Source of the DNA: Romanomermis culicivorax
Lineage: Eukaryota; Nematoda; Enoplea; Mermithida; Mermithidae
DNA: 64,000 nucleotides
Reading direction: 5' to 3'
Assembly (NCBI GenBank): GCA_963922205.1
Contig: CAWUHX010000091.1
Location: 1 to 64,000 of the forward strand
The position numbers and the translations under genes were made by a program. Positions 4,556-63,390 of the stretch are shown here, piece after piece. The notes under the pieces were generated by a model. It searched no databases and was not told the DNA's origin. It saw only the letters and a list, made by a program, of their open reading frames with translations. Numbering within the stretch: position 1 is the first letter of the stretch; each line of letters starts with the position of its first letter.

Positions 4556-6074
4556 GGGCCCGGTTTCACCACAAAACTCCGTATTGATAGTGAAATGTCT
4601 GAGTTACGAGTCCCGTGTTAAGAGAGCTATGAATAGTCGTCTCACCAAAAATCAGAGTTTACGAGCAAGAAATTACGAGTCTAGGGGTGCTACGAGTGGT
4701 CGTTTCACCAAAAAAGAAAGTTTATGAGCACGGGCCCACGAGTTATGAGTGTTACGAGCGACGGTTTTTCATAATTTACGACTGTTCAGTTTCACCAAAT
4801 GGGTTACCCATCATTATGATGATGGAAGGACTCGTAAATTTGATGAGATTTTCACGGACCAAAAGTGGGTCCGTAGGACTCGTAGCTTAGTGATGTTTGA
4901 GCCTTTTTGTCATTTATTTTTTTGTCAACCCAACAAAAAAACGATAATTTGGATATTTTTCCGAAATTACTGCATTTTGGGTTAAAAACAAGCATTTTGA
5001 CATTTTTCTGAAAAACCCCAAAAAAATAAAATTTTTTAGGGAAAAACCAATATGTCCATAGGATTGCCCATGCAAAATAACCCTCCCTCCTCTGCCACCT
5101 CCCTCTGGTAAAAACCAAGGGCGTCCTCTGCCAGCAAACCATGACCTCATAAATCCAATTTGAAGGGTTCCCGTATATAATATATAAAGGGGTGGAGGAA
5201 CGCCTCTGATTGGCTAGTTTCAGAAATGTGCTACCCATCTTGATTTTATTCAAGACGGGTCTTGATTTTTTTCAGGGTAGGATCTTGATTTTTTTTCAAG
5301 ATGTTATTTTATTTTTTTTCGAGATGCCATCATGCCATCTTGATTTTTTTTCAAGATTATCATGAGAAAAATGCGATGCACTTGAAGGAAAGTCGAACAT
5401 TGAAAAACTCTCACATCTTGAGTTTTTTGCGATGCATCTGGAAACTTTCACGAAGCATCTTGAAATTTTTGTGATGCATCTTTAAAAACATGTTGTGCAT
5501 CATGTTCGGAGGTAAAATTTTTTTTCAGGTGGTAACAAATTTTTTCAAGTAGTAACACATTTTTTCAAGTATTAACGAGTTTTTTCAAGTGGCCCTTCTT
5601 TCATTCCGTACAAATGATTAACAAAAATGAATACTCTGGAAAGATCTACAAATTTTTTGCATTTTTCGGATGTTTTTAATAAAATTAACTTATCTTCACA
5701 ATAAATTTAGAAAGTTTCTGATTGAGAAAATTTCTTCAAGATTTGATGAAATTTCGGAATAACTTAGAAATTAATAATTTTCAGAACAAATTTCCCAATC
5801 CAATTACAACATCCAATTATAAAAACATTAAGAATTCCCGTATAACGACCGCCAAAAAACACCCCATTAAATGATCATTTTACGAGTCCTACGGAAATCC
5901 TGGTGAAACACTCTTACTACGGACTCCTAACTCAAGGCACGTCACTCCTAATTTGTTGTCCGTCGCCCGTAGATTGTAGCTCGTCATCCGTAGCACGAGT
6001 GAAGCTGGTGAAACTGATTAACTCCTACAATTCGACACTAGTAGCACTCGTAATTTTGTGGTGAAACCGGGCCC
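4556..6074. mobile_element. Fold-back element FB1 (word TTACGAGT / TTTCACCAAA)
   Basis: The ends are a perfect 21 bp inverted repeat beginning GGGCCCGGTTTCACCACA (4556-4576 and 6054-6074). Inside each end is an array of loosely repeated TTACGAGT and TTTCACCA words: 4577-4880 in one orientation, 5875-6053 in the other. The middle is low-complexity T-rich DNA with no credible transposase. No clear target-site duplication is visible. Confidence 0.75.
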
Positions 6075-6192
6075 TGTTTCTTTCACGATCAAAATTACGC
6101 GAGACTTCGGAAATTGGAAAAAAACATCGCAATGTAATTTTTCGATTGTTAAGGATAATGTTTTTAAAAATTAGCCACAAGAAAATGTTATA

Positions 6193-6350
6193 GGGCTTCC
6201 TGGGTGGCGCCGGAGCTGTCCCACCACTGACCAATGTTGAGGTAGGTGTGACCAGCCGACCACGACTCAACGAAAAAGGTCCGGTTCGAAACCCGGGGAT
6301 TGACTGGAACACAATCCTACAGGTGGAATGTTGTATGTTACAATACAACA
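6193..6350 (+). mobile_element. SINE-C copy 1
   Basis: A GC-rich unit with a B-box-like GGTTCGAAACC at about 6282 and a conserved tail (GGTGGAATGTTGTATGTTAC). It is about 75% similar by eye to copies at 29734, 63590 and 63795. It lies 118 bp beyond the end of FB1. Confidence 0.6.
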
Positions 6351-7606
6351 AAAACTCCCATATCACATTTTTTGAGTTCAATGTCTATTTTGTGATGTTT
6401 TTGTGAATTTGAAAATTTCTAAAATGTGACAGAATTCTTGATGTCTGTTAACTGATTATGTGATTGGAGTTATAAATTTTTATGTTATTCATATAAATTT
6501 TCTCATCAAATTAGTTTCATTTCCTTTTTTCAGTTTTTAAACTATAGTGACATGGATACGATCAACTGGGCATGTAATTTGTATGAAACCATCAATTTGC
6601 ATAATGTTCGTAATTTATATCTTAAATAAAAGTCAATGTAAGGAAGTGATCCTTACATCATTTATCTCTTGTTTTTAATTTGTTTTCCTTTCTTCACATT
6701 CTTGGATTTTCTGTTTTTTCCTACTTTTTCATTCATAATATATATATATATATATCACTTTCAAGTTTTATAACTCGCGAACTGTGTGACACATTAGACT
6801 TGTGGGTGGAATAAGTATGCCATCATACAAGAGTGTCAAAATGGGACTTGGTGTTAATTAATAAAGAGAATGAAAGGACCTAATCAGCTACTCCCTAATT
6901 CACCTAATCAGGCTGAAACTTTAGGTAGAAATAGTGTACAACAGTTCGGTCAATCCCAATCTCAACAAATGATCAACTGCTTTCGTTCTAAAGAACTGCA
7001 GGTGATCTGATAACTCTCTGAGCTCAGGTAAGTTCCAATCAACGGGCAAAACTGAGAAGTCAGGCCGAGAATTGAGTTGTAAATGTAGACTTGCACACAG
7101 GGTGGTACTCCAGACATCTGGGTCCTAACCTGCGTTCTCTCCACTGCAAGAATATCGAATAATGTCCGGGTGCAGGACTTTGTATTTTGGCGAGAATTCT
7201 CCACAAATCCGCAATCAATAAATTATAATAATTGGCCGGTCTGGCGGCCGATTTTCTTTAATAAAAATAAAACACACAAAGAATGACCAAAAACGTAGAC
7301 CAACGGGCCTTTTATGCGAGTCGTCTATGCAAATCGGCGTCGAGACGGGTTGACTTTGGCTAATTTGCACAACCGTGAGATAGACTATGTCCATCCCTGA
7401 CAACAGCTACAGTTTGGGTAACATGAACCTGAACCACCAACAGAAGTTCCGTGATTTACATATGATCAAGGGGGTGCCCCAGGGTACCTCCTTATATTGA
7501 GATAGAACTAAAATCTGACCTTGATATTTATCATTATCAGCAATACACGGCCCATCTTAATAGTAACAGTGGAATAGCTGTTCTCTGATTGTGAGTAAAG
7601 CAGCAA
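6351..7606. other. Intergenic DNA with a (TA)n run
   Basis: A short (TA)n tract lies at about 6738-6755. Between about 6940 and 7405 the base composition is more balanced and could be an old transposon remnant. No exon with good splice sites is seen. Confidence 0.35.
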
Positions 7607-8566: not shown

Positions 8567-9313
8567 TTTACTAAACGTTTGTACTGAACTAGGGTTGCAC
8601 AAAAAGATTTCTGAACCATACGTTCGTGTTTTCAATTTCACTGTTACAGAAGAACATAACGAAATCTTCGCAGAGCCGTTTATCCGTGTCAAAAGACACG
8701 AATCGATTTTGCTGTTTCATTCTATTAATCCCTTTTCAAAACTTGTCCTGATGCATTGCTCGCTCCTTGAGTGTAAGGATCGGGCCAACCCTAAAATCCT
8801 ACTAATGCCTCCGCCGGGAAGGGTTTTAGAATGGTATATATTTTCTTGGGATTTAGGGAATCTAGGGAATCAAGGGAATTTAGAGAATACACGATCAGAC
8901 GTTGCTGTTTTTTTACTTTTATACAATTCATAACCTATATTTTAATAGCTAAAGTTCATGGTTGACAATTTACAAGTAACACCGATTTCTGCCTCACTCG
9001 AAATAAAAGTTTGTTTCTAGGTAGCTTGTTCATTAGGAAACTAAAGCGTGCATGTATATTACTGAAGCTACCTCGCTTGGATAGAATTTCACCAGGATGT
9101 ATGAAACTGCTGAAACAAGCAACAAAGTTGCAAATGCCCTATGACTGTAGCAGAGCAAGGTCAGTTGGCCTTGACCTAAAAAGAAAACTTTTTGCATGGT
9201 AGAAATGAGCTTATCGTTAGTTTCTCGGAATATTGGACCGACCACTGACTTAAATCATATTATATGCTAGCTTTGCATACCAATAAACCGATATAGCTCA
9301 TGTAAAACTTGAT

Positions 9314-9503
9314 AGCCAGGTTAACTAAAGAAAGTCAGTCGACCTCGATAGTATGCAAATGACAAAAATGCGTCAGTTGACCTCAAAAGAATGCTAACAA
9401 AGCAAGAGCCAGGTTAACTAAAGAAAGTCAGCCGACCTCGATAGTATGCAAATGACAAAAAATACGTCAGTTGACCTCAGAAAAATGCTTACAAAGAGCC
9501 AGG
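9314..9503. repeat. 95 bp tandem duplication inside FB2
   Basis: Two adjacent units starting GAGCCAGGTTAACTAAAGAA differ at only a few positions. Each carries CGTCAGTTGACCTC and GTATGCAAATGAC. Confidence 0.8.
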
Positions 9504-9639
9504 CTATTCGGAATTCCATTACCTTCTCTTGACTTGAATGTAGCTCATACTGGTAAACTTCGAGTATTTTCGTGATGACCTTTCCGTTTTCTCGCACTTT
9601 CTAAATTCGTGGTTTGTTGTGTCCATTCGTTTGCTTAAA

Positions 9640-9777
9640 ATGTCGTCGAAAAACAAGGAGAAACTTTCTCCCGAGTTTTGCTTTGCTACTTATGTAAAAG
9701 CTTTCCTCGAAAGGATTGATTTTGCAAAATTATTTGATTCAGACCAAGTAATATTGCTGCTATCAATTCAGCAATAA
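9640..9777 (+). CDS. Short coding-like frame inside FB2 (possible captured first exon)
   Basis: ATG at 9640 opens a 45-codon frame whose composition looks coding (MSSKNKEKLSPEFC..., then a helix-like AFLERIDFAKLF). A possible donor CAA|GTAATA follows codon 36 at 9747. A GC-richer leader precedes it. No second exon is visible before the FB2 word array begins near 9880. I do not recognise the peptide. It could be the first exon of a gene caught in the element, a remnant of its own coding region, or chance. Confidence 0.25.
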   Translation: MSSKNKEKLSPEFCFATYVKAFLERIDFAKLFDSDQVILLLSIQQ

Positions 9778-10232
9778 CAGGACCTTTGCTCATCAGTGAT
9801 AATTTCGTGAATTTCTTACATTGGTAAAATTCAAATGATTACAAAGATTCTTTAACTTTCCATGCTTTCTTAAATTGATTAGAACCTTTAAATTCACTTG
9901 ATGTCTTAAATTTCCTTGACTCCCTAAATTCCCTAGGTTCCTTAAGTTACCCTGATTAGTTCCCTTGATTCCCTAAATTCCCTAAGTTCCCTTGATTCCC
10001 TAACTTCCCTAGATTCCCTAAATTCCCTAGATTCCCTAGATTCCCTAAATTCCCTAGATTCCCTAAATTCCCTAGATTCCTTAAGTTCCATTGATTCCCT
10101 AAATTCCCTTGATTCCCTAGATTCCTTAAGTTCCTTTGTTCCCTAAATTCCGTAACTTTCCTAGATTCCTTAAATTACATGGTTTATATTCCTTATCATC
10201 TGATTGTATTAGTAGGAATCTACGGTTGGGCC

Positions 10233-11112
10233 TAAGGATCCCTCGCTACCTCATTATGACGTAATGTTTTCGTGACAAGATCAAAAATTGATGAGCAAGC
10301 TTCCCGTTATTCCTCAGAATGCCGCTTGAAGGCGCCTAAAATCTCATCACCCGGAGGGGCATTTTCAGGATGTCTCTGCTATAGGCAGTCACTTCTCTGC
10401 TTTGCTCGATCTAACTTAATTAGAGGTCTATTAAATGGGATTCTAGATTGATTGAGTTCCCATCAACAGCATTTTTATCGATCATTCGATTGAACCAATA
10501 TAGCAACTGCGTGGAGAAAGATTTAATTATTGTTAGGTGGGTTACTATGGTGATCCGGAAAAATAAAGGAATCTAAAGCTAATTAGATAAAAGTGAAACT
10601 GCGCTGCGTGTATGTATCTACTAATCAACCTTATTTTCATATTTTTCTGTAAAATTTGATGGGATTTTTTATGCATGCATTTTTTTGCCCGGACAGGTGT
10701 TCGGGCGAAGATAGTAAATAATGCCTCCTTATCTGTGACAGCTGCCATGCATTTATACTGTAAGCAGAAGCTCCCTTATTGTATCGATTGCATCTGTCCG
10801 TGTATATTATGCATATTATATGGGTCAGCTTTAGACCCAGAGTCTTGAAAGACCTATTTCTCTCATTTCTCTCTACAGAATGATTGCAGATTTCGTCTAG
10901 CAGCTTAGAAAACTTTCGGGAAGTATTCTCGTCTTCTGAGAATAATGATACAGCACATATGTGTGTGTGTGTTGAAATGCTTCGTATGCAAATGAGCTTC
11001 GTTTCGTAGATCGTATACACTGTTCATTTCAACCTGCACACAAAAATCTGATTCATTATTCACAGGCATCTGCAACTAAGGGCAACGCACAACTCAACGT
11101 TCATTTTTACAG
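10233..11112. other. Presumed promoter/5' region of the G-gamma gene
   Basis: No exon is assigned. A (GT)n run is at about 10960-10972. On the minus strand at 10840-10960 there is a coding-looking frame (SEDENTSRKFSKLLDE) without a matching donor; I do not call it. Confidence 0.3.
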
Positions 11113-11245: not shown

Positions 11246-14200
11246 ATGTCTAAGGGAGGATCGTCGGCACAAATGGAAGCTTTGAAAACGCAAATTGAAC
11301 AATTGAGAATGGAGGCCAGCATTCCGAGGAAGAGAATATCGGAAGTTTCGAAAGAGTAAGTAGGCAAAGTGATAAAATTCTAATGTGGCCCTTGAAAGGA
11401 AATGATAGATTCAACAGAACCCAATTTGTTTCTAAGCAGGTAGTGATCCCAACACATGCCTCATACAACTATAGCCTATTTACTTCGAAATGATAGACAT
11501 GTTTATCCACTCTTGATCTAATTTGAACTGAATTTTGACACCTAGGTATTTCTCGAAAAAATTCTGACCGTTTATGGGAGGAAATTTTCCCCTGTTTTGT
11601 TTACCGCTCACGAACCAGAAATTTTCTCCCTTCACTACAGAAAAATAAGCTTTATTAGTTTTTCGTTGTTGAATTTACTTCCATGGGATCGCTGCATCCA
11701 TCATTTCAAAATAAATGGAGTATCGTCAAGTTATTGCAGTCAAACTGTGTATTCTGGCATCCTCTTCGTTTCTGCACTCATTGGTTCAATATCAATCGAT
11801 ATGCATTTTTACGACCAAGTAGAAAAAATCCTGCTTTCACTTAATACTTTACAGTAATCAGAATAATAACTTTTCAGTTTTTTTACTTGTTCCTATTTTT
11901 TATGGGCCATTTGCGCTAGTGGGCTCATTCGCTGTTATGGATTATTCGCGCTTTTGAACCCCAACCTATTCAACCAAGTATTTTTTGAGTAAAAGAACAG
12001 TGAAACCTTCGTGTTAACGAGTTTGAGGGGAATACACATTTTTAGTCATTTTTCAATTTGCAAGCATTTTATAAACAACAGTCTATATTTAAAATTAAAA
12101 TCTGAATCTCACATTTTTCTCCAAGTTTAGCCAACCAAACAGCCCACGATTTGTCTCTCGAATTGCCCCGTGTTTTCCCACACACTTTAGCCCGCCATTT
12201 GCCCCAAGCCCATCTTTCGTCATTCCGCCAGTTTAATTTATGACGAGCCTCAGCTGGGTAGAAAAAATCAGAAAAAACAGTGACGACGTGTAGCACAAAT
12301 TCTAATAAAGATTCACAACGCAGGTTTTTAACTTGCATTTTATACAAAGTGGTCGAAGCTTACTTGGAAAAAATAGACAATAGTAGTGACATTTTCGGTG
12401 TTTTACGGATTGCGTCGCAACTTGGCGCCCGTCTCACTTTAGCTTCCATGTATTTTCAGAGCCCGTCTAACTTTGACGCCTTGTATCACCTTGGCGTCCA
12501 TCTTACATTTGTGTCCATCTCACTTTGGCGCCCGTAGCGATTCAAATTTTACGCGCAGCTTTACATTACCATAATGACTGTGAATAGCTCAGGCCCTTTT
12601 GAGTGACCTAGGCCTATGCTTAAGCCTGCATAAGCCTAAGCCTAAGCTTAAGCCTAAGCTTAAGCCTAAGCTTAAGCCTAAGCTTAAGCCTAAGCTTAAG
12701 CCTAAGCTTAAGCCTAAGCTTAAGCCTAAGCTTAAGCCTAAGCTTAAGCCTAAGCTTGAGCTTAACTAAGCCTAAGCCTAAGCCTAGGCCAAAGCCAAGG
12801 CCAACATTTATCGTGCCAAATATGATCTTCTTCAACATTGTTCTGGCCTAGAAAATGAAGAATTTCGCTGTTCTTCCATTTGGAATTGATCATTAATTAC
12901 CATATGTAAAATAGTTATAAGGAAAGTCATAAGGAAAGTTTGAGACGGGCGCCAGAGTAAGACTACTGTTTTTGGCGCATAAATTTATAACCATGAGGAA
13001 ATCCTCAGAAGCATAGGAAAAAACATTGTCAGATGAACGGCTATACAAAATCAGTATTATATTCGATTCATTATGGAATGATCGATGCTGCGAGGTTGCG
13101 GCCAAACTTTTATTCAAAATTATGGAAGGTTCGTTGACTCAACCTTCGTGATACAATGTTCTTGATGATCACTCTTTTCAATTATTTCTAGATTATTGAA
13201 AAAGATTTCTTGACCTCTAGTAAAGCTGTGTTTGCCGAAACTCCGTCCCCTGCATCCATAATTTCAAAATGAATGGAGCCTGCTTACGCGACTGCCTTTT
13301 TTCTCAGATTTACTGTAGCAGCCAGCAATACACCTTAAAAAAAGAAAATGTTGACATATGATGCACGGTCATCATCAACTTTGGTGTTCTTTGAACTTTT
13401 TTGCATTCTAGGACCCATTTGAAAATGAACAGACTATAGTTTACTGTTGTAGAAAAACAGAGAAGTTCATGTATTCTAAATTATTTGCTGTTATACCATC
13501 TTGCTTCAATTTTGACTAACAACCTTTCGTGAATGTCCAAATATGAATAATTTCTAAACTCACTCTCTGTTTGAGGATTCTCCTCATCGAGCTCGTATCA
13601 CCCACTCAGCCTGTTCATTTTCAACGCAACTTTGAAGCTTAGCTTCCCAAGTTTTCTGCTATATTATAAAGCCTTATTTCACATGCACTTCAAAACGTCG
13701 CGCGAAAAAGTTCGATTTTCGATACCGACTAATTGGAGTTTGACGCTAATTTCTCTACGGGTTCAATTGATATCACGAGTTCCACTTTATACATTATTCG
13801 GATTGGAGTGCTGCTGTTCCGAGTTCAAATAATCATTTCAACGTTCAGTATTTCTCATTAAACTTTGGTAAATGAGACGCAACTAAAATTAAATTGAATT
13901 GTCTAATGCTCGCAAAGGAATATGTTGAGAAAGAGCTTTGCTAATTAACTATTCACGCGTACAAAATCCAAGACCGTGAAAAATGTTTCTTTGAAAACGA
14001 AATCAAATTTTCCCAAATGCACAAATTATATTACAGATCTACTCAGATTGTTCGCTGCTTTAGCGCCAATAAATTTTTTGCCATACAGAGAGTGTCAAAA
14101 ATACGATAAATTCCTTTTAATTGTTCAGAAGTAATACTAAAAATTACATATTTGTCCAGGTTAACCGAAAATAAGTTTTGAATTCATAGGGGTGAAAACA

Positions 14201-18470: not shown

Positions 18471-20788
18471 GGCCCAATTGCTCGACTTCAACCTTAACTA
18501 AAATGGCTGTAAAAGCCCAAATTTAAGGTTGATTTTGTTGTTCGACTTTAACCTTAAAGTCCAAAGAGAGCCTTAACGCAAACATTGAGAGCTAAGGCTA
18601 GCCTTAGCAAAGATAACCTTAAGATAGCGTTAAAAATCTGTTGCTCAACTCGAACCTTAAACTTACCTTAAGGAACCGTTAAGGCTTCACTAAGGCTGGC
18701 ATTAGAAAAAAATCTATCATTAAAGTAATCATTAAAAAATGAAAATATGTACAATTAAATGGCTCATAAAAACGAATGGCATGAACACTTCTAATCTCAT
18801 CCATTCAGAATAATTTTATTGTAATGTTTTCAAACTGAAAGTGCTCACTCTTGAAAGTTGTAGTGGTTTTCAAATCAATACACTACGAGTATATTATGTA
18901 TTATTGTGTGAAATGGAATACTTGTCTTCCAGAAAGTTTGTTCACATAGCTCTTTGACGTAGACGCTCGTATGCATACATTTGAGAAGAATCAAGGAATT
19001 ATAATATGACAATCGAAGTTTAGTTCTCAATAAGTTTTCATGTTTGTCATATTGTGCATATATAACAAATTTTGAAGTTATTACTACATACAGTAAGGTC
19101 ACTAAGTAATATACGGGATTTGATGCGGATGTAGAAATGTATTCATAGATTTAGCCGATTTCTGGATAAAAACTATTCGTAAATGTTCTCAGCTGTTCCC
19201 GGATTGTGTGATAATATCAGATAATAAACAATACTTTTAGTATGAAAAAATTACTGTATACCGTCTGTTCAATTCGAAATAACTTTTGTAATATTGTTAA
19301 GTGAACCTATCTTGTATGTTAAATTTACCACAGTTTATTAGTTTATTTTTGAAGCACATATTTATTGTGCAGGATGTTCATCTCCAGTCGAAAGAAAAAG
19401 ATTATGACGAATTCTTACTCTGAAGATTATAACAACTGAATTGATGGACATTCATACTGTCAAACGTATTATCGAGGACAGTTGGTTTGCCAAAAAGTGA
19501 ATTCGATTCGGAAGTAGAAAGTTCTAGGCATGTGATGTTGTTGTTAGTAAACCTCGGTGCACAATTTATTGATTTTTGGTTTTTCGCTGGTGCTTAGTGT
19601 TGCAGCCGTTCGAGATTAGGACTGCATGAAAAAATGGACAACGGGAATGTCGGGGTGGAGGTGCGGTTGGGATAAGGAGATACAACCATGGCGTCGCGTT
19701 GGACGGGAAAGTGAATGAAGAAGATAACAACGACGATTCGGGAATGGGACAAAGACGACCCTGACAAATGGAAAGTACAAAAATCTGAGACTGGAAAAGG
19801 TGAGCTCAAGATTTATTCCGAATAAAAATGTTTGATGAAGTTACTGTTGTTGTCGTGTAAATTGAATGAAAGACCAAAAAGATGTGAACAAGCCTTGATA
19901 GCTTCAAGGAGATGCACGGTAACCAAGTTAAAGATTATCTTGTGTACAGGCATGACTATTTTGAAAAACAAGGAGAAAAAACGATCAGGGCTTGTAAAAG
20001 GTGAAAAACCAATGTAAGAAAACGTGCGGCTTATATACAAAATAATACACAATAAAACTCGAAAACGAAAAAATCTATATCTTGAAATTTTGCCGAATCT
20101 TTGTTTTTCAGTGTAAAATTGCAACAACGACAGGACGTATGATGCATATTGATCAGCAATTTAGGTTTTCTCGTGAGTCTTTATGGATAAATTTATCAAT
20201 TTTTTCTTTCCTCAATTTTCTCGTCATTAAGATGACGTAGGGAATACAAACAGTGAGTCATGGACGTAGGAAGATATCGCTCAAGAACAAAAAAAAGTTC
20301 CGAGGGTAGTTTTTCTGTTGGTTTACGGACAGCTTTCGGACACTATTATAGATTGAATTCAAATGCCATAATTCAAATATAACTAAAATCAACATTTTCC
20401 ACAGCTTAGATATCAGTTAATCGTCTTTCCCCTTTGTTATGGTAGCTTTCGACCTGCTTTAAGAAATCGGCCTTAACGCAACCAAAGAGCTGAAAGTGGA
20501 GAAACAGAAAAATCTTAACTCTACCTTATGTTGTTCAGATGTGCTAAAAGTCCATATCCAGCAGCCCGATATTTTTAAGGTTTCATTATGTTCGCCTTCC
20601 TTAATGGTCGCGTTACTGTATAAGTCGAGAAATTAATCTTAAAAATAAACCGTAGGCGAGTCTTAATGGTCGTTAAAGTTGAAAGTCAAGCAACATGATT
20701 TTTAAACGCAGCCATCAATAAAGGTTCGCATGAGGCAAACTTCAACGTTAAGGTCATCTTTACTGAAGTTCAAGTCGAGCAACCGGGC
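18471..20788. mobile_element. Fold-back element FB4 (word AACCTTAA)
   Basis: Ends: GGCCCAATTGCTCGACTT on the left and GCCCGGTTGCTCGACTT reading inward from the right. Arrays of AACCTTAA / TTAAGG words lie at 18490-18690 and 20450-20760. The 1.7 kb core holds several short coding-looking frames (near 19371-19500 and 19600-19820), none with a complete exon structure or a recognisable domain. Confidence 0.65.
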
Positions 20789-27057: not shown

Positions 27058-29733
27058 GAGCACAATAGTGTTATAACCCATCTTAAGTGAACTACTCCAT
27101 CCTTTTTTCAACCAATAAGTTACTTTTCCGAAACCATGCAGTCCTACTGTAATCAAATAGATTCCGTCATGACTGCTGGTATAAGTAGTCCATGCACCGT
27201 CTGACCTTTGATTTTTTTATACTATGCACAAAAAACTACTACGTTAACTCCATTATGGCTGCCCAGTGAAAAACAAACGGTCTATCTTACTCAAGCTTAT
27301 CACGGTTATGTCAGTCAATGTGTCGTCCAACGGTTGGATGACATTCCGTAATTCCCCATAAAGAATCAAGATATGAGAGATAATTTCTTACTGTAGGTCG
27401 ATCGACCGGGCGCCACACTTACGTGTTTTGTGCCCCTAGGCCATAAAATTGTCCAAAATGCGCTGGGTTGAAAAAATTAACAAGATTTTTACAGTAACCC
27501 TTCTCCGGTGCACCATTACTGCATGTACTGTTATTTTCAAGTACTGCAGTCGCGTGCGACCTTCACATTCTAGTGTACAAGAGTATCGATGGTCGGTCGA
27601 TACGGGTTTTGAAGATTTTTTGCGAAATCTATCTATCATTCGGTTTTATAGGCTCGTGTTGATGTCAAAAATAACGGGAGAATGGTATACGTATGTGCAC
27701 CGTGAGGAGAAAATAGAATCCAAATTACAGAAATTATTACCCAATCTATCAAAGTTCTAATGGTTTGACCAGTATGCCACCTAGAACGTTGAGACAGGTG
27801 AGGAATTTGATGATAACGCTTGTGAAAAATACGCGTTAAATCTGATGCTGCAAAGAGAGAAAAATAAAGAAACAAAAATTACTGTAAAATGCCGAACCAA
27901 ACAGGAATTAGTCATATGAAATATTTTTATCAAATCACTGCTGCATTCAAAAGTTATGTCAAATCAAGAATATTCGTGATTGTGTAAGAAATGAACACTA
28001 ATCGTCATCGAAAAGTTTTTATTACCCCATCGAATGATGTATTGCGTGCTCTATATAAAATAAGGAGATAGCAGATCACTTCCAAAATCAGATTCTTAGA
28101 AATTCTTCGATTTTTTGTGTTTAGTCTTTAAAATATAGGATAGATAAGTTTTAAAAAAGTGAACATTTCGAATCCAAACTTAAATTTGTTCTTTGGGCAG
28201 ATGTGTGCTAAAGTATCACTATTCCATATTATCGAACGAATTAACAATCGGAATATAGTTTCAACCACCTTGTTCAAGATGCAATTTTCTATTTATTTGC
28301 AAATTTTATTTTACCGTTCAAGTTTAAAGTAATTTACGTGAATAACTTATGTTTTACTGTAGCTACCTCGATGTATCAGCGTCACATGTGCGGCGAAATT
28401 CGGCATCGAATCAGTATTTTTAAACAGAAGCCAGCCAAAAATATCGTCAAAACCGACGCCAAACGATTAATGAAAAAAAGTTAATGTCAACAGTTTTTGC
28501 GACAGAGAGATGCCCTGCAAAAAATGGCGCTAAAACTCATGATCTGAATCAGTCAACATTTTTTAAGGTGAAGATAATTATCAAAATTGGAAGACTAGAC
28601 TAAAATTACCAGAAAAAAGTTCGATGTTTTTTCTCCCAATCTGTATTAGAGGCTTTTTATAATCGTTGTTTTCTAAAATTTATCATAAACTTTCTCAATC
28701 CACGGTTTTTTTGCGATCATACCACTTCTCTAGTGATTTGTCTCCGAGTTTTCACCCTCACAAATTACAGAAGAGGTAAGGAGATTTTCAATAGTGTTCA
28801 AAGAGGCGCCACATGTGCATTATTCACTGTTTTAACACTTGCGCTAAAAAGGGATTATTCCTTACTTCATTAATTAACGTTCTAGACGTTTCTAAAAACG
28901 GCAGCCTTTTGGCGGCTTATCTCCAAAAGAAAATTTATGACGTACAAATGCGGTGGCCACCTTCATTTATTGTCTTTATGCAAATTAATGAGTCTCTTTC
29001 GTGCGTATACCAATGTTCGACAATCAATAAATTCACGCTCTATCAAACACCGACTTGCCCTGCAGGCCTTGTTGTGTGATACTCATATAACGACCAACTT
29101 TCTCCGCGAAAACAGCGTTCATTCTACCATATCATGCAACATTGACTTCGATAATTCTACCGCCAGCAAAGTTGACAATTTTGGAATTTATGCAGACACC
29201 GAAACCAGTCTTTCAGAGATAAGGAAATACACTTTTCAGTATCAAACCTTGCTGGCCTTATCGAGTCAACATGTGAGGTATCTTTTGTTATGTCGACAAT
29301 ATATCATTGAATTGAATTGTGTTTATACAGTAAATATAAACATGCATTGTTAAACATCGTTATACGGGGGTGATACTTTGGCGAAATGAATGTTACAGAA
29401 CATAATGTGCTCGAATGAACATCACATTACTGTGATGTACAAGGTGGTACACTTGAGAAACGGGAATTATTTAAGAACACAAATGAAATGGAATCACATG
29501 TTATCACGATTTGACTTGAATCAAATCGGTATTCTATTTTTAATGCGACGCTAAAAATAATTACGTATCTGACATATAAATCCAGCATACGCGTCTGAAT
29601 GTTTTGAATTGAGGTTAAAAATGGGATCTGATTTGAAGTGAGCCAATGTTGTAATGGAAAAAGTATACATTCAATTAATATGAACAAAATCCAGGTCACT
29701 AAAATCGTTATGAAAACCTCTTTCGATTGTTGA
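27058..29733. other. Unassigned AT-rich region with scattered open frames
   Basis: Open frames at 27220-27355, 27449-27760 and 28813-29353 (all +) have somewhat coding-like composition but no domain, and no splice signals that chain them. They could be remnants of an old element or exons of an unknown gene. No clear repeat ends are visible. Confidence 0.3.
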
Positions 29734-29896
29734 AGGGCTTACTGGGTGGCGCTGTAGCTGTCCCACCATTGGCCAATGTCGGGGTAGATGTAACCATCCC
29801 GATCAGGTCTCAACAAAAATGGCCGGGTTCGGGAGCCGTGGATTGGCTAAAACATCAATCCTACGGGTGGAATGTTGTATGTTACCATACAACCCG
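29734..29896 (+). mobile_element. SINE-C copy 2
   Basis: It matches copy 1 along its length (GGCTTACTGGGTGGCGC, GTCCCACCATTGGCCAATG, ATCCTACGGGTGGAATGTTG). It ends directly where the FB5 word array begins. Confidence 0.65.
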
Positions 29897-30620: not shown

Positions 30621-30628
30621 CAATCCAC

Positions 30629-48512: not shown

Positions 48513-49283
48513 AAGTCCTATTCAAAAATGAAATTGCCGATTGTCACTATTCCTAGGATTTAACCAGCGACAATCGTGATGCGTCGAGCAATTTTTTCTT
48601 CCTATGCTAAGCATGTAAAAAATAATCGGCGACAGTCCTGAAAAATAGAACATTTTGCCGAATTTCACCAAGAACTCCTAGGATTAAAATCAGCGACAGT
48701 CGCCGATTTTCGGCGACAAAAATCCTAGGATTTTTTCACTTCTGAATTGGTAGAATCGGAAACAGTCGCAAATGAAATTTCCGCGGAATGGGCGACAGTC
48801 GGCAACGATCCGCGACAGTCGGCAACGATTCGCGACAGTCGGTGGCAATCGGCGACAGTCGGAGATTTATAAAAATTTATTAATAATTTGGAGAATCCAG
48901 AACGTCATTTTATCCAGTATTCGGGGAATCGGGACGCTCGGGTAATAGAGACTAATGCATTGTTCGTAGAGACGGGTATTTTATTCATCATTCGGGGAAT
49001 CAGGGCCTTCGGGGAATAGAGGCTTTCGGGGAAACGGGACATTCGGGGGAAATGGATGCTCGGAAAGTAAGGACAATCAAAAAACTAACCACATTTTTGG
49101 GAAAGCGAGTATAGACATTCCCCTAACAAAAAACAAAATAAGGTTGCACTTGAAAGTAACCAAACAATTTTCTTCCCACACACGTGGATTGTATTGGCGA
49201 GAGTCGGCGACAGCCGATGACAGTCGGCGACAATCGGCAACAAGAATCCAAGGAGTTTTTCACTGGCTTTACCCTTCTGAATC
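48513..49283. mobile_element. Fold-back element FB7a (word GGCGACAGTCGGCAAC)
   Basis: Left end AAGTCCTATTCAAAAATGAA; arrays of GGCGACAGTC at 48590-48870 and 49195-49245. ATCCTAGGATT palindromes and TTCACTTCTGAATT end words lie between. A second word set (ATTCGGGGAATCGGGAC) occupies 48900-49075, suggesting a nested element. Confidence 0.6.
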
Positions 49284-49920
49284 ATTAAGTTCTCACTTTA
49301 AGTTTCAAAATTCAGACCCATTGTTCAATCGAATCGAAAATTATTAAGTGAATTGATGCTTGCAAGTCATCCTTGTAAGTTTGTAAAGGTGGAGAAAAAC
49401 AAGTTGCTATCTCACACTTTGATTAAATGCCAGTAGCGAATATATTCTTTCACACAAGAGAAATACTTTAATTTATGGAAACATTTCACAAGACGCGTAG
49501 ATATTCAGCCTCGGGATCAACTCTAAAAACCGCAGTTTTCGCTTATCCTCGGACTTTTCGAGATTTCACCATTGATCAACGTCATGAAAATGCACCAAAT
49601 TTATTGAAAGCAATTTAGTAAAAATCTAGCAGCAAAAAAAGCAAAAAAGCGGAATGCAGTCAAGTGGAAAAACAAAATTAGATCATGAAATAAAAAAATT
49701 AGAGACGAAGAAAAAATGTCGGGGGTTCGAGTATGAAAGCCGCAAATACAGAATTCGAGGAAATAAATTCACTGGAAACAGTGACTAAAATAGCAAAGTT
49801 TGGGCTACTATAGCTAACTTGGTTAGTCTCATGAAAAAAGTTTTAAGGCATAGCAAGTGGCCTTTATTCAGGCCGCGAAACAAGTGGTTATATGAGATTT
49901 TTAACAAATATTTGTTTTAT

Positions 49921-50296
49921 ATTTTATTTATTTTAAAATGATCGATGCAGCAATCCCATGAAGTATGTTCGATGCGAAAAAACTAGTGAGGTCATTACAT
50001 TAATCAATGAAAGAATTTTTTCTTCGGTGAGTGGCAAACAGAACAGCTGAAAATGTCCTTTAATAACTTGGTGAAGTGGTCAAAAAATAGTAGCACGCAT
50101 CAAGTATTGACGCTATTCTGTCCAAATCGGCAGTGGATAAGCATAACGTTTTTTTCATGATTTTGGCATTTCCCATTCTCATGAAGGAATTTAGCGTTTT
50201 TCTACAGTATATAGTTTCCCACTAAGTGAAAATTGTGTATCAAGTTGAACCAATTTTTTTTCGCTACGTCTATGATTTGAAGTAAGTGGGCTATAG
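49921..50296 (+). mobile_element. CTATA-type MITE, subfamily B2, copy 2
   Basis: It starts near TTTTAAAATGATCGATGCAG and ends at CTATAG (50291-50296). It is co-linear with 34761-35138 (AAAAAACTAGT, AATAACTTGGTGAAGTG, TTTTGGCATTTCCCATT). Confidence 0.65.
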
Positions 50297-50454
50297 TTCT
50301 TAACAAATCTTACGGGCATTCAAGACTGATTGTAAAAATTTATTGCGTTATGACATACTCATATTTGATTAGTACAAGAAAAATGTTGAAGTTGATATAG
50401 ACCACGATGCATTTGGAATTCTAGAGACATTAATCATCAGAACATAAATCCAGA

Positions 50455-50575
50455 TTTAAACTCACTCTGAGACCTAGTTTTACCAAAGATACTTAAGCTC
50501 CAGCTCTGCTGCAACTTAAGCTATGGCTTAACTCTGTGAGTAACATTACCGTCACGATGCAGCTCAGCAAAAATG
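50455..50575. mobile_element. Fragment of an FB9-type element
   Basis: AGTTTTACCAAAGATACTTA is followed by AGCTCCAGCTCTGCTGCAAC and further AGCTTAAGC-like words. It matches the left end of FB9; the right end is absent. Confidence 0.55.
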
Positions 50576-51322
50576 TTCATAAAAAATTTCTGTGAACCAA
50601 CAGTATCAATTTTCGTTTTTTCTCCGTACACAAATTCAATAAAAAACAGTTTATAGCCGACAGAGCAATTTTTTTAGGTCGTTGAAGAAATGCCCATAAG
50701 ACCTATGACATCTTCTCAATTGAAACTTATTCCATCTAAAATTATGAGATAAGTAATGCAATCCTAAAATTTTACTTGATAATATAGCGTTTCGGAAAAT
50801 TGTTTCTCAGAAATGTTATCATCATGATCCACATACAAATATGAATTATAAATTTCCATTATTACCTTTGATCATGTAAATTTTCATTGATCAAAGTAGA
50901 ATCTTTGATGTCATCGTTTTAGTAAAGATCAGCTTTATAGAATATATGCTTATACTAGTAGTTACGCAGTGTGACAAAGAAATGATGTTGAATGGAATAA
51001 ATGGATTGCCGCGCCATTGAACTCTACGAGTTTTGCATGAAACAGATGGCATTTTTTATTCTAACCTTTACAAAACACCATTCACGGCTCACAGAATGGC
51101 AAATGAGGTATCTCGTAACAGAATAATCGTTGCCAGGCATTTCTCCGACGATGTCCGGAAATCATTCTTCTTGATTAAAAATTGGATCATTGTTTTCGAA
51201 ACGTGATTCTATATCTTAGAAAAGTGTGTTTTTTGCTCAATTCATCAGTTAGCTGACTTTCAGATAAAGCTCATTTCTCTTTACTGTTCAGTTAGTAAGG
51301 AAAATCAGTTTTCCGTAAACTG
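50576..51322. other. No feature seen
   Basis: AT-rich DNA between two fold-back pieces, with no exon or repeat end that I can support. Confidence 0.35.
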
Positions 51323-51491
51323 AAGCCCTATTCAGAAGTGAAAAATCCTAGGATTTTTGTCGGCGACAGTCGGCGACTCTATGGAATGAATAGGCAATTT
51401 GCAGAACGCCCAATTCAGAAGTGAAAAAATCTTAGGATTTTTGTCGCTGACAATCGGCAACAGTCGGTGACTGCGCTTCTGAATTTGGCTT
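51323..51491. mobile_element. Fold-back element FB7b, 169 bp
   Basis: Ends AAGCCCTATTCAGAAGTGA and, reversed, AAGCCAAATTCAGAAGCGC. The inside is almost only the GGCGACAGTCGGCGAC word and ATCCTAGGATT. It is the smallest complete member of the FB7 family here. Confidence 0.7.
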
Positions 51492-55600: not shown

Positions 55601-56508
55601 TATGAAATCATGAGTTCGAAGTTTAGAATTCTGGGAGACGGATTGGGAGACGGATCAGGATCTGTGGCAAATGAACATCACAAATTGAATTCGGATCTCG
55701 ATCCTCTTTATAATTATTCAATTGAAACTGATTCTGCGTACTCGAATACAGTCGCAATGAATTAAGTGTGCTCGTGAAAGATAAAAAGATTTTGTTTTCT
55801 ATTTCTGTTCAATAGAGATCTGGATTAATGGAACAACTGGCATAAAATTTTGATCACTGTATAGATTTTTAGACTCTCAGATCAGGAACTTTTCTGATGG
55901 CATGCTTTTAGTTCATGCCCAACTGTAAAATTTTCTGAAATAAGGTCAGTCTATTCTGCATATGCAGGACATATATTTCTTCCATAAAACATGTGGAAAA
56001 AACCATAAAACACTATACTATAGTGAGTTTTCACTTTGACTGATGATTCTTCTCTGTATACAAGTATTTGGAATTTTTAGGTAGTAATCTTTTGCACCAG
56101 AAAATTGTACTGCACGATTATGATCTGAAAATGCATGGATGGATATTTGCACTACACATGCTTCTGATTCAGGCCAAGCTTTGAGCTGGAAATCTACGCT
56201 CATTTCGGTTTACTGTACTTCTTGACTTTTCGCAATAACATGATGCCCGACTTTCTTCTACTAAATTTTCTCTCTAATATCTAAATTGACAACTATTCCT
56301 TCACGGCTCAAGTTTGGACGCCTATCACACACCTGATTATGCCTTCGCTGAGCATCAGTTTTTCCTTGGGTAGTGCGCTGGGCTTGCCGGCCGAAAACAT
56401 GACGTCGAACGGTTTACTAGCCGCATGGTCAGCTTTTTTGTGGGCCGAATAATGATGACTTTGGTCGTCCAATTCGGAAGTTTGATGTTCTGTTTCTTCG
56501 TCGGACAT
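52614..56508 (-). CDS. unc-87: UNC-87-type protein with seven calponin-like repeats (five exons)
   Basis: The exons are 56508-56333, 55477-55278, 55069-54866, 54192-53963 and 52883-52614. Total 1080 nt, 359 residues, and every junction keeps phase. The N-terminus (MSDEETEHQTSELDDQSHHY) is polar. Seven CLIK repeats of the form GTNKxASQxGMTGxGxPR follow: two in exon 2, one in exon 3, two in exon 4 and two in exon 5. Repeat 6 is the most divergent (GINWGDSQAGKTAFGAPR). There is no calponin-homology domain. Seven repeats without a CH domain is the layout of nematode UNC-87, which binds and bundles actin in body-wall muscle thin filaments; the length fits its short isoform. A possible leader acceptor (AAATTTAG) lies about 20 bases before the ATG. 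Intron 4 is strongly pyrimidine-rich on the sense strand. Confidence 0.92.
52930..53880. repeat. Strand-asymmetric purine-rich tract in unc-87 intron 4
   Basis: About 950 bp where the plus strand is A/G-rich and poor in T and C (GAAGAAAAGAAACATAAAAA and similar). The transcript of unc-87 is therefore U/C-rich here. It has the same texture as 17600-18470, without an obvious repeat unit. Confidence 0.55.
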
Positions 56509-59090: not shown

Positions 59091-59407
59091 TCTATGTATT
59101 GAACGATGAGAAACAAAAAGAATATTTTTAATATCGATGACTTCCTTATTTGTAATGAAGATCAGAACGATATTGAAATGCTTTTGAATAATGAAACTGG
59201 AAACTAAATACTGTCTCATATTTAAACGAGTTTTTTCTTATTCACGTGTGATATCGGATTCACCATTTGTTACAACTTTTTGGGTAAAAACTCTATAGTA
59301 AGCTTTACAGAAACTAAAAGATAGTAGCAATTTTTATCCAGACCCTCTAATGATTTGAGATGTGGAAACTTCTGTTGAACATAATGCTTTTTTGACTTCT
59401 ACTTCAC

Positions 59408-62400
59408 CTATAGGCAAGGAATGTGAAGATGCTAATTACGACGACCATCAACGATGCGTAAACGAAAAATTCCGTTGCTGGTCGAAACAAATGTGTTCCG
59501 GAGATAATCATGTCTAAAACATTGCCCGCGGCCACGGTCAACAGCCATATGGCTTGGAGTACGGATTTCATGCTAGGCGACGCTTGCGAATAAGAAAACT
59601 CCAAACCGGATATGGAAAACAACAGTTCGCCTACCGTTATCAGTACGAATTGCGGCATTTGCCAGAAAATGTTGACCTCGTTCGGGTGAATAAGGTTGAA
59701 CTGCAAGCAACATGAAAGAGCGATTAAAAAATCGAAGTTAATCCAGAAGAAGGCTCCCAGGTGCACTCAGAGCATTGGAGCAACATCATCGCAATGTAGG
59801 CAGAACGCCGAATACTTTCTTGTCTATAGACAATCTTGAATGAATTCTTCACTCAACATTTACGTAAGTGTCTCTGATACCTTGAAGTATCACAATTTCT
59901 GTATTATACTTTTTCTTTTTGATGCTGACTGCATCTCGCATATGAAACAAAAAGTTTGGAAGTTTTTTCATCACTCAACATAATTGAATCTTCTATAGTT
60001 AAACTCTCACGAAAGTGATTTCCGAAGTCACCACTTATTTCCGAAGTACAAATCAGTTAGAATTTCATAGAGCATAGGCTATAGTATTACACGGTAGCAG
60101 GTGATGATTTCTGATGAAGTAGTACGGCTATATAACACACTAGTTTATTAGAAAATGCCCCGATGGGACAGAAAAAAGAAGAATATACTTGCTTGGATAG
60201 TTGCCAAGCTAAAAAAAATAAGTGAACTAGATTTTTGAGAACTTGGGTTAGAGTTGGAAAAAATTCACTCTCGTTATATTGGATTTTCATTCTTTCTCAA
60301 AATAAATTTTCCATGACTGTGAAAAAGTATATTCTGCAGCTTCGTGCATTTTGTCCTTCCCCTGGCATCAACTACAGTAAAATTTTTCTATATGCACATG
60401 ACTTCAAATGTAAAGAAATGGTAAACCAATAGCATTCTAACTCCCGACCGATTCAAAACTCCTGCATCTCACACTAGCAGAAAAATAGTGAGGGAGGCAT
60501 ATTATAGTCATTTTCAAAACTATAAAGAAACCTGAGGTTGGTTGCACTAACCCAACATGAGGATAACCTCAACATCGGGATTAAATTGATGATCTTCAAT
60601 TTGAGCCAGATTATTTTCTTCCAGTGCACAAACAATACTCACTTCAGGATAACTAATACTGAGGTTTAAGTTCGAGTTTGGGAATTGCAGACATTTTTAT
60701 ATTTATTTGCTTTAGAAATAAGACAATTATGCGAAAATTTTAGTGCAACCCGACAGCTCGAGCTAGGGATAATCTCGACATTGAGCTCGTTATAATCCTG
60801 ATGACATTCAAATTATACCGAACTTGAGATCGGACCGAGTCGCCTTTTTGTTCGAGATTATCTTGAGCTCGAGTTTAGACCTGCTTAGTGCTACTGGGCC
60901 TTGGTTACAGTCATTGGGCACCGATCTGCAAATGGGAGAACAGGGTACAGTGCGCGAGTTCTTTGAAAGCAAGACGGGAGCAACAGGGATGGGTGAAATT
61001 GCTTCCCGTCTGCAATTCTGCTTAAAGCGCCCATTCTGGAAATTTCAGTCTAAATTCAAAAACTGTGAATGATGCCATTTTGTTGAATAGTTAAATAGAA
61101 GAGAATAAATTTGTTTATAGCTTGTAATCAGTAGAACATACGGAGTGAATTCTATACAATAATGAGTGAATTAAACATATCTTGCACAATCGATTTAGTT
61201 CTAAGAAGACTTTGTTCTGTAGCTTTTTCTAAAAAAACTGAGTGGGATTTCATGTGTCACTTTCCCAGACTTGATTCCTGTTACGCTTGTTCACACTCGG
61301 GATTTTTTTTGTGTAACGTGACCACATTCATTGAATTCCGCGTGGTCCAAAACCCCATGCCCCAAATAATCACGAAAATACGCTTGTTTACACCCGAGAT
61401 AATTTTTCGTGTAAAATGACCGCGTCCATTGAATTTCCCATGATCGAAAACTCTTACACCCTTAAAATCTCAATAAAAATCTCAATAATAAAATGTCAAT
61501 AATTGAAACTGCAAAAAATTCTGGCACCGTAGTGCATTATGCTGCAAAAAAACAATTTTTTTGTAAGCCGTAAGTTAATTTAACAAAATTGCCGAATTTT
61601 GCGGTTCCCGGCACTTTGGGCCACCCTATAATTGAATTGAGGCCATATTTTAAAAAAATTAAAAATCGCACATGAAATTCCACCCCCCCCCCCAAGATGC
61701 TTAGGCCGAAGTATGGAGCTTGGATATGGCACACCCATTGCGGAGCCTGGTGGAACTGGGAGCCCTTAAAAAGTACGTTTTTTGCATATTTTTGGGGCCC
61801 CACCGAGCACCACTTGCAGATCGAGGCGAAATGACAAAAGGCACCCCATAGTTTGCCCCTATGCCCGAAATTATGAAAAAACCCGATGTTCTAGCTGTTA
61901 CCGTTTTTTTAAATTTTTGCGGGTACACCTACCCATTTTCCTATAGCTAGAATGGCAGGCTTTACAGGACTATACGGGCATATAAGTGCCCACCTTATAT
62001 GAGAGGCGCTCTTCGCGTGCTTTTTACCGCCTAGTGGAGGTCACACTCCACAAGCTGGCGTCTGCCTGACAAGCAGGACTTGATCGGCTACCTACCTCAT
62101 AATGAAATAGGCCCACCTCCTCATTCGTCGCACTATCGCCAACATGCTAACTGGGCTGAGTAGACCCCGGCAAGCAGCGTTCCAAGTTCGCCTACAGAAT
62201 TTATCTACCCCAAGAGGATGAAAGGCTGTGTCTGCCCGGGCCAGCTACCAGAAATTCAATTTCGGGTTACACCCGGAATCGAACCTGGTTCTTGAGACTA
62301 GCAGTCAGAGGCGATAACCACTAGACCAAGACGGCCCCCTCTTACCGTTTTGGCTCTAGGGGGAGGGCCATGAAATTTTGGGGCCAAGTATATTATAGGT

Positions 62401-62958
62401 TGACGCTATCGCGCCACCTATGATGACTGCGCCAATGCTCAATCTAAAAAATAGTGGCTAAATCAACTCAGTGGACGAAATGATACAGTGGCTGAAATTA
62501 TATGGTACACAATCAAACTGTGACACTGTCCGTCGAAACTCACTTCACTGTATGAACTATTCTCCATAATAACGAATAAATCCACGGCTCCGGTCCTCGA
62601 TACTACGTCTTTTATTGTAACATTCCGGCAACTGCCAATAACGCAAAAATTTAAATAGAACCGAAAAATATTCGACCCAAAAATCGGCGGCCTCAACTGA
62701 ACGATTGCGGCTTCGTTTTTTGGATCAATATTATAAGAATCGACGAAATTTCGACCCCGCCACACTTCTAACGTAGAATTTTGTGTCGATTTCGAAAATG
62801 ACGGATGCAGAAGTACAAAAGCAGTGCTGTTGCCTCCTTCCGACTTTTGGACAGTGTACGATAATTTAGTCCAATATTGAGCATCCGGCCAAGTGGAGAT
62901 TATGAGACCATTTTTATGTGAAACATTAGTGTCGTTCGAATTGTTGGAGAAAGACAAC
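59408..62958 (-). CDS. Proton-coupled oligopeptide transporter SLC15/PEPT, 3' part (exons 62958-62544, 59700-59408)
   Basis: Two exons joined in phase 0. The first (138 codons) lies in the large extracellular loop: it has many N-glycosylation sites (NNS, NDT, NST, NVT, NSS), no membrane segment, and ends [14 protein letters not shown] near the expected loop end. The second holds the last three membrane helices with the family signature [19 protein letters not shown], preceded by [19 protein letters not shown] and followed by [20 protein letters not shown]. It ends at the donor TATAG|GTGAAG, so at least one short terminal exon is missing. The PEPT signature makes the family secure. These proteins import di- and tripeptides with protons, in worms mainly at the intestinal apical membrane. 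The first nine helices are upstream, beyond the right edge of the window. Confidence 0.82.
60534..60902. mobile_element. Fold-back element FB8 (word GGATAACCTC / TCGAGATTATC)
   Basis: Left end GGTTGGTTGCACTAACCC; reversed right end GGCCCAGTAGCACTAAGCAG. A third terminus-like copy (TCGGGTTGCACTA, reversed) is at 60741-60755, so two nested versions are possible. It lies within the transporter intron. Confidence 0.55.
60903..61072 (+). other. GC-richer segment with an open frame
   Basis: The plus frame reads [17 protein letters not shown] then [13 protein letters not shown]. It faintly recalls a calponin-like repeat, but key residues (GTNK, GMTG) are absent. I leave it uncalled. Confidence 0.25.
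61288..61456. repeat. 95 bp tandem duplication
   Basis: Two units containing TTCACACTCGGGATTTTTTT / TTTACACCCGAGATAATTTT and CATTGAATTCC / CATTGAATTTCC lie head to tail. Confidence 0.55.
61898..62351 (-). mobile_element. tRNA-derived SINE-D with target-site duplication
   Basis: The minus-strand head (about 62267-62340) has an A box (TGGTCTAGTGGTTAT) and a B box (GGTTCGATTCC). It is followed by a 330 bp GC-rich body and an A-rich tail at the left end. TTACCGTTTT flanks it on both sides (61898-61907, 62342-62351) as a 10 bp target-site duplication. It lies in the transporter intron. Confidence 0.7.
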
Positions 62959-63021
62959 CTGAAAAATATAACATTTCAATAGCGGCTGACACAGTTCACA
63001 TAAAGTGAAAGTAAAACTCCT

Positions 63022-63390
63022 AGGGTCGGTTTCATCAAAGAGACTTAAGCTCCAGCTGAGCCGCAGCTTAAGCTGTAGCTTAACTCTATATTTTATACCA
63101 TTGCCGTTAAGCTGCAGCTTAGCTGTAGCTTAGCTCATACGCACAAAACATATTGGGAAAGTTAAGCTGTGCTGAGCTGCACCTTAACGACAATGTTATA
63201 ATATACACAATTAAGCTACAGCTCAACTGCAGCTTAGCTTTCTAGATGTTTAGTGTGCATGAGTTAAGCTACAGCTGAGCTGAAGCTTAACGACAATGGT
63301 ATAACATATTGAGTTTAAGCTACAGCTGAGCTTGCTACAGCTGAGCTTAAGCTCAGCTGTAGCTTAAGTCTCTTTGATTGAACCGGCCCT
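63022..63390. mobile_element. Fold-back element FB9 (word AGCTTAAGCTACAGCTGAGC)
   Basis: The 40 bp ends match at 36 positions: AGGGTCGGTTTCATCAAAGA on the left and AGGGCCGGTTCAATCAAAGA reversed from the right. The interior is almost wholly overlapping AGCTTAAGC/AGCTGAGC words, so the whole 369 bp can fold on itself. Confidence 0.8.

What the first reader, a model, noticed from the sequence alone, without database searches (positions are those of the whole stretch)
4556..63390. A set of fold-back elements sharing one terminus but each carrying its own subterminal word array
Five structures (FB1, FB4, FB7b, FB8, FB9), and probably FB2, end in variants of GGCCC(G/A)(G/T)TT: GGGCCCGGTTTCACC, GCCCGGTTGCTCGACTT, GCCCTATTCAGAAG, GGCCCAGTAGCACTAA, GGGCCGGTTCAATCAAA and GGGCCAACC. 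Just inside, each has inverted arrays of a short word that differs completely between families (TTACGAGT, AACCTTAA, GGCGACAGTC, GATAATCTCGA, AGCTTAAGC, TTCCCTAGA). This looks like one transposition machinery recognising a fixed tip while family-specific subterminal words amplify and turn over. The tip recalls ISL2EU/PHIS-type DNA transposons, but that link is from memory. I know of no described nematode system with this range of arrays.
Basis: partly seen in the sequence, partly recalled or inferred. Interest (0 to 1): 0.8.

Follow-up and report, generated by a model that had tools for sequence, protein, structure and literature searches.

The report
Transposon families sharing one tip
Several families of jumping DNA in this worm genome end in the same short sequence but carry different arrays of short words just inside it, probably docking sites for each family's own helper protein; three of the six structures first proposed fit this pattern.

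Summary
Partly confirmed. Genome-wide the tip CWG|GGCCCGGTT occurs 274 times against 9 for the reversed pattern, in front of clearly different inner words. FB1, FB9 and FB4 belong to families with this tip. FB1 copies show CWG duplications. Paralogous empty sites with a single CWG exist for 3 of 19 elements examined. In family D, 24 of 26 end pairs carry the same W. One complete 3.9-kb element with this tip holds a DDE_Tnp_4 transposase and a Myb/SANT-like gene, the latter just below Pfam's cut-off. The system is a two-gene PIF/Harbinger-like (PHIS) group, NuwaI-type by its CWG duplication, not ISL2EU. Three proposed members fail: FB2 has 8-bp duplications, FB7b has TWA duplications and another tip, and FB8's "tip" lies inside a longer repeat. 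Inferred mechanism: the machinery acts at the shared tip, while the family's Myb/SANT protein binds its own words. A paper reports such binding to a 9-bp subterminal motif for zebrafish Harbinger3_DR (PMC9710019, passages). The words are not all unrelated: five resemble xCCTTxx (post hoc).

The parts
4554..4556 (.). FB1 left target duplication CTG
4557..6073 (.). FB1, non-autonomous CWG-type element, 1517 bp, tip GGCCCGGTTTCACCACAAAA, words ACTCGTA and GGTGAAAC
6074..6076 (.). FB1 right target duplication CTG
18471..20788 (.). FB4, decayed member of the ACCTTAA family (same tip and words at L070 and L110); own duplication not recognisable
63023..63389 (.). FB9, decayed member of the AGCTTAA family; flanks CTA (63020-63022) and TTG (63390-63392), each one change from CTG
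29728..29819 (+). paralogous empty site (82% over 92 bp, single CTG) for the FB1 insertion held in L047; only 16 bp lie left of the junction
6193..6276 (+). second paralogous empty site for the same insertion (79% over 85 positions, 9 bp left of the junction)
8782..10232 (.). FB2: not a member; separate family with 8-bp duplications TAAGGATC at 8774-8781 and 10233-10240 and TTCCCTA words
51321..51490 (.). FB7b right part: not a member; family with TWA duplications and tip AGCCCWATTCAGAAG (this locus holds several partial copies, 48600-51490)
60534..60901 (.). FB8: membership not shown; its GGCCC 'tip' at 60897-60901 is internal to a larger high-copy repeat, though exact-tip elements L089 and L082 carry a similar GAGATAATC word

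Best explanation
FB1, FB9 and FB4 are mostly non-autonomous copies of cut-and-paste transposons of the PHIS superfamily (PIF/Harbinger-like) that insert into CWG (preferring CCWGG) and duplicate it. Shown here: the shared tip, the CWG duplication, the inverted words near both ends, and one full element with a DDE_Tnp_4 transposase and a convergent Myb/SANT-like gene. Inferred: excision and joining happen at the shared tip by the transposase, whereas the Myb/SANT protein binds the family's subterminal words and brings the transposase to the ends, so that the tip stays fixed while words and their binding protein diverge together. Arrays change length by gain and loss of word-bearing units (a 70-bp unit is repeated in L057 but not in L053).
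For: Tip 137+137 against 4+5. FB1 tip 52+54 against 0; 54 of 58 unique FB1 tips have C at -2 and 54 of 58 have A/T at -1 without this being asked for, and 9 of 15 FB1 pairs have an identical CWG (some of the 15 are duplicated loci). 37 of 90 unique tips have an inverted partner with at most 4 of 16 mismatches followed by CWG, against 0 of 90 for a composition-matched control, and 33 of the 37 have the same W (two ends of one element can both count). Family D: 24 of 26 pairs have the same W, and neighbours within 12 kb face inward 28 to 1 (first 100 of 109 places). Empty sites. L099: 3927 bp, CTG/CTG, DDE_Tnp_4 50.0 and 41.9 bits, Myb_DNA-bind_5 20.2 bits. L028, an FB1 left end running into a decayed DDE_Tnp_4 gene, 25.9 bits. 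GGTGAAAC inverted between the two arms in 16 of 16 FB1 copies listed. 58 of the 150 Myb hits lie within 2.1 kb of a DDE hit, all convergent. Papers: CWG group NuwaI with DDE and Myb/SANT genes (PMC4482050, passages and section 7); Myb-like protein binding a 9-bp subterminal motif (PMC9710019, passages).
Against: No binding was or could be tested. The Myb match of L099 is below Pfam's cut-off (20.2 against 21.7). Only one intact-looking two-gene element with the exact tip was seen, and the L028 gene is a relic without close copies. 6 of 15 FB1 pairs do not have identical CWG, and the 10.3-kb family D element that contains the best DDE hit has unmatched W. 18 of 109 unique tips fell in no word family. 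A paper passage says that the transposase of characterised PIF/Harbinger elements lacks an obvious DNA-binding domain (PMC2836001), so the tip may not be read by the transposase alone. NuwaI TIRs are said usually to start GGG; here the base after GG is C.
Confidence: 0.65

Rival explanations
1. The word arrays have no role in transposition: they are minisatellites that grow by slippage or unequal exchange inside the ends of CWG-type PHIS elements and hitch-hike with them.
For: Unit number varies between copies (L057 against L053; one unit present or absent among the D tips). Other 17-bp arrays in the window carry no such tip.
Against: In every family with a full-length copy examined (A, D and F) words sit near both ends and, for the FB1 word GGTGAAAC, always inverted between them; different families carry comparable arrays at the same place inside the tip; five words share a core.
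Confidence: 0.22
2. The words are targets of an element-encoded anti-silencing or regulatory protein, as for VANC proteins of Arabidopsis VANDAL elements, not transpososome sites.
For: PMC5735166 (abstract and one section read) describes targets that form tandem repeats and vary between related elements.
Against: VANC motifs are described there also in introns and upstream regions, whereas here the FB1 words sit in the two arms and are nearly absent from the middle of the 1.3-1.7 kb copies. The second gene seen here is Myb/SANT-like, not VANC-like.
Confidence: 0.1
3. The shared tip is convergence on a short GC-rich end or chance, and the families have unrelated machineries.
For: FB2, FB7b and FB8 show that GC-rich ends of this look arise in unrelated elements.
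Against: 274 against 9 in the reversed control; the same CWG duplication rule in families A, B, D, E and F where pairs were found; DDE_Tnp_4 genes in A and F.
Confidence: 0.03

Closest known systems
NuwaI group of the PHIS superfamily (PMC4482050; passages and section 7 read)
   Same: CWG target duplication; DDE transposase plus a Myb/SANT gene in an element of about 4 kb; TIR begins GG
   Different: The passages and section read list NuwaI in bony fish, a beetle, a crustacean, a mollusc and an anthozoan, not in nematodes; TIRs are said usually to start GGG; family-specific word arrays are not mentioned in what I read
PIF/Harbinger, Harbinger3_DR of zebrafish (PMC9710019, PMC2836001; passages)
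   Same: Two genes; Myb-like protein reported to bind a 9-bp subterminal motif and to bring the transposase to nucleus and ends
   Different: One motif in one element, not many families with one tip and different arrays; the typical PIF/Harbinger target is AT-rich, not CWG
CACTA transposons (PMC8978399, passages)
   Same: Conserved tip, subterminal arrays of 10-20-bp units, 3-bp duplication, second gene
   Different: Other transposase and tip; plant elements in that paper
VANDAL/VANC of Arabidopsis (PMC5735166; abstract and section on tandem repeats)
   Same: Short element-specific motifs that form tandem repeats and turn over together with the protein that reads them
   Different: Protein and role differ (anti-silencing); motifs also in introns and upstream regions
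ISL2EU (PMC4482050, passages)
   Same: Same PHIS superfamily
   Different: AT duplication, THAP and YqaJ domains; neither the AT target nor these domains were seen here

Membership tests
PHIS superfamily | DDE transposase of DDE_Tnp_4 type | tested here: met
   L099 50.0 and 41.9 bits, L028 25.9 bits, cut-off 24.8
NuwaI (PHIS) | CWG target duplication | tested here: met
   window FB1 CTG/CTG
NuwaI (PHIS) | second gene with Myb/SANT domain | tested here: inconclusive
   L099 PF13873 E=5.7e-4, 20.2 bits against cut-off 21.7; one element only
NuwaI (PHIS) | TIR usually starting GGG | tested here: inconclusive
   with a CWG duplication the TIR starts GGC; if only W is counted as duplicated it starts GGG
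NuwaI (PHIS) | position in the Nuwa clade of the transposase tree | not tested
   no reference transposases of the group were at hand
ISL2EU | AT target duplication | tested here: not met
   CWG in FB1 and family D
PIF/Harbinger sensu stricto (3-bp TWA target, from memory; AT-rich per PMC4482050) | TWA duplication | tested here: not met
   not met for FB1; FB7b family tips do show TWA, its transposase was not looked for
hAT or another 8-bp superfamily, for FB2 | 8-bp target duplication | tested here: met
hAT or another 8-bp superfamily, for FB2 | transposase of that superfamily | not tested
   FB2 is therefore not filed under any superfamily

The most novel reading that the evidence does not exclude
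The words are a natural mutational series: the main words of families B to F (AGCTTAA, ACCTTAA, ACCTTCG, CCCTTCG, CCCTTTG) can be ordered so that neighbours differ by one or two bases, as if one ancestral Myb/SANT protein and its array had diverged stepwise in one genome while the tip and the CWG target stayed fixed. The genome would then hold a ready-made record of protein-DNA co-divergence in a transposon. Families A and H do not fit the series.
Probability: 0.25. Interest if true: 0.72.

Novelty: new variant of a known kind. Interest (0 to 1): 0.5.

Why it matters
It separates two layers of end recognition in Harbinger-like transposons inside one genome: a tip and target that stay fixed, and an inner code that changes between families. 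If the inner words are binding sites of the second protein, cross-mobilisation between families, and why these elements need two proteins, become directly testable.

Tried and rejected
ISL2EU was rejected on the target (CWG, not AT). FB2, FB7b and FB8 were removed from the set after looking at other copies. An FB8 reading with CTG/TTG flanks that I held for a while was dropped when the outer flank proved conserved. The 10.3-kb family D span C136:479813-490131 holds the best DDE_Tnp_4 hit, but its two W differ and its DDE gene could be a nested insertion, so it is not used as the family's autonomous copy. The FB1 copy L028 has only a left end and a relic gene; the tip 14.4 kb away has CAG where the left has CTG, so I do not claim a 14.4-kb element. 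A transposase tree was not made for want of references. Two genome searches did not complete: pattern CWGGGCCCAGTT and the L099 transposase as protein query. The word-similarity test is post hoc: I chose the words and their frames; shuffled words reached the observed mean 0 of 5000 times for five words and 36 of 5000 for seven. One search listed 19 of 20 loci (L086 failed its position filter); one search used 96 of the 154 DDE matches and 58 of the 150 Myb matches, typed because they lay near each other, so '58 of 58' there is by selection and only 58 of 150 is a count. One search returned nothing because of an error in my pattern and was replaced. Literature: the tip string was looked for in the library (20 papers hold one of four strings, the 10 listed are on other subjects by title; the other 10 were not seen); others (3 papers; 8 papers) gave no account of such elements in nematodes by title and abstract start.
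Full report
Question. I tested each structure on other copies in the same genome, which is held as G000 (359 Mb, 595 contigs).

FB1. The 15-bp tip GGGCCCGGTTTCACC occurs 52+54 times, the reversed pattern 0+0. Copies were fetched. Flanks read CCW|GGGCCC...GGGCCC|WGG. Over 58 unique tips C stands at -2 in 54 and A/T at -1 in 54, while positions further out are mixed apart from a preference for C at -3 (35 of 58). So the duplication is CWG, the TIR GGCCCGGTTTCACC, the preferred site CCWGG. Of 15 pairs with exact tips, 9 have an identical CWG and 6 do not; some of the 15 look like duplicated loci. The window copy has CTG on both sides.

One tip, many words. The pattern CWGGGCCCGGTT gave 137+137 matches against 4+5 in the control; with A, C or G as next base, 45+42 against 3+3. 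From the listed places 30 loci, 20 more of 3.4 kb and 20 short windows were read, besides the FB1 tips. Among 109 unique tips I distinguish by inner sequence 58 of type A (FB1, ACTCGTA), 9 of type B (FB9, AGCTTAA), 2 of type C (FB4, ACCTTAA), 10 of type D (ACCTTCG), 7 of type E (CCCTTC), 1 each of F (CACTTTG/CCCTTTG) and G, 3 of H (GATAATC, like FB8), and 18 others. Word counts in the first 130 bp are high for the own word and near zero for the others; type E's and H's arrays are weak. The sample is biased towards FB1, because its tip was searched first.

Are these ends of transposons? For 90 unique tips the locus was searched for an inverted partner followed by CWG: 37 have one with at most 4 mismatches in 16, against 0 for a control of the same composition, and 33 of the 37 have the same W. 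Seven of the 37 are not FB1: one of type B with CAG/CAG and one with CTG/CTG, two of D, one of E, one of F, all matched, and one of H, unmatched. For family D the pattern CWGGGCYSRGTTGCACAACT gave 56+53 matches against 0. Among the first 100 places neighbours within 12 kb face inward 28 times and outward once; 24 of 26 pairs with defined W match (binomial p 5e-6). Of 19 elements with matched duplications whose flanks I joined, three match an uninterrupted paralogue holding a single CWG: L084 (D) against L083 (82% over 142 bp) and L093; L042 (FB1) against L054 (83% over 58 bp); L047 (FB1) against the window at 29728-29819 and 6193-6276, where only 16 and 9 bp lie left of the junction.

Which superfamily? 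L028 starts as an FB1 end and runs into a broken gene with a DDE_Tnp_4 match of 25.9 bits (cut-off 24.8) and a sub-threshold HTH_Tnp_4 match. It has no close copy: apart from itself the best of 79 matches are 50-55% identical. L099 (C64:652344-656270, 3927 bp, CTG/CTG; coordinates) carries CTTTG words near both ends, a DDE_Tnp_4 transposase in two pieces (50.0 and 41.9 bits) and, convergent to it, a Myb/SANT-like gene whose match of 20.2 bits lies just under the cut-off of 21.7. L109 looks like a duplicate of the same insertion. In the genome PF13359 gave 154 matches with 150 of 460 candidates scored, PF13873 150 matches with 150 of 497 scored; 58 of the 150 lie within 2.1 kb of a PF13359 match, all convergent. 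Most of these are not next to an exact tip in the listed places, so the CWG-tip elements are a minority of the PHIS elements here, or their tips vary. The FB1 and L099 catalytic stretches are 31% identical over 52 aa: one kind of machinery, not one enzyme. CWG duplication, DDE and Myb/SANT genes are the features given for NuwaI (PMC4482050), which in what I read was listed in five animal groups without nematodes.

The members that fail. FB2: six pairs, five exact 8-bp duplications and one 7 of 8. FB7b: 557+520 matches within 3 mismatches; 20 fetched ends show TWA|AGCCC. FB8: 540+605 matches within one mismatch against 5+4; 20 copies share the bases outside GGCCC, each of 8 positions identical in 18-20, and 5 copies plus the window share longer outer sequence in two versions. 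FB8's own end is therefore unknown; the exact-tip loci L089 and L082 with a similar word leave open that FB8 descends from such an element.

The words. In FB1 the word GGTGAAAC is reverse in the left 450 bp and forward in the right 450 bp in 16 of 16 listed copies; ACTCGTA is enriched in both arms and rare in the middle. In family D, L057 repeats a 70-bp unit with words at 41, 111, 181 and 251, while L053 does not; a shorter unit is present or absent among the short D tips. So arrays do change, but within FB1 they are fairly stable. The main words of B to F share xCCTTxx-like letters more than shuffled words do (0 of 5000; 36 of 5000 when A and H are included). This test is post hoc.

Mechanism. 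Shown: tip, target, inverted words, two genes in one element. Inferred: words are sites of the Myb/SANT protein. The basis is the report that the Myb-like protein of Harbinger3_DR recognises a 9-bp subterminal motif (PMC9710019, passages) and that ORF1 protein positions the transposase (PMC2836001, passages). The latter also says that the transposase lacks an obvious binding domain, so what reads the shared tip is open.

Verdict. A real pattern, found from a window in which it was barely visible, with three of six members right. It is a new variant of a known kind: CWG-type PHIS elements whose families keep one tip and differ in an amplified inner code.

Noticed in passing
29908-30623 and 45069-46312: Two further fold-backs with inverted arrays of 17-bp units (TCGGGGTAAAGGGACGA and GTCGGAGAAACGACACA types); their ends were not determined and no GGCCCRGTT tip is there.
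   Followed up: no
939-1428 and 2719-3208: Inverted repeat of 490 bp, 96% complementary, 1290 bp apart, with open frames on its arms that match no Pfam family.
   Followed up: partly
12607-12796: Array of TAAGCTTAAGCC-type units, 93% matches, near but not part of the FB structures.
   Followed up: no
50482-50570: Fragment resembling an FB9 end (ACCAAAGATACTTAAGCTCCAGCT) inside the FB7b region.
   Followed up: no
52614-55677 (- strand): Calponin-repeat gene (PF00402 in three exons scanned); also HLH at 23674-24267, PTR2 at 59404-59766 and a C. elegans Ly-6-related domain at 31661-32203.
   Followed up: partly
L074-L078: Five places on one contig (C14) with identical tip and identical 6-bp flank: a repeated segment carrying a GATAATC/CTCGAG-type end.
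   Followed up: no
60897-60901 and L150-L174: The FB8 repeat has over 1100 near-matches and two different outer sequences; its real boundary and mode of spread are unknown.
   Followed up: partly
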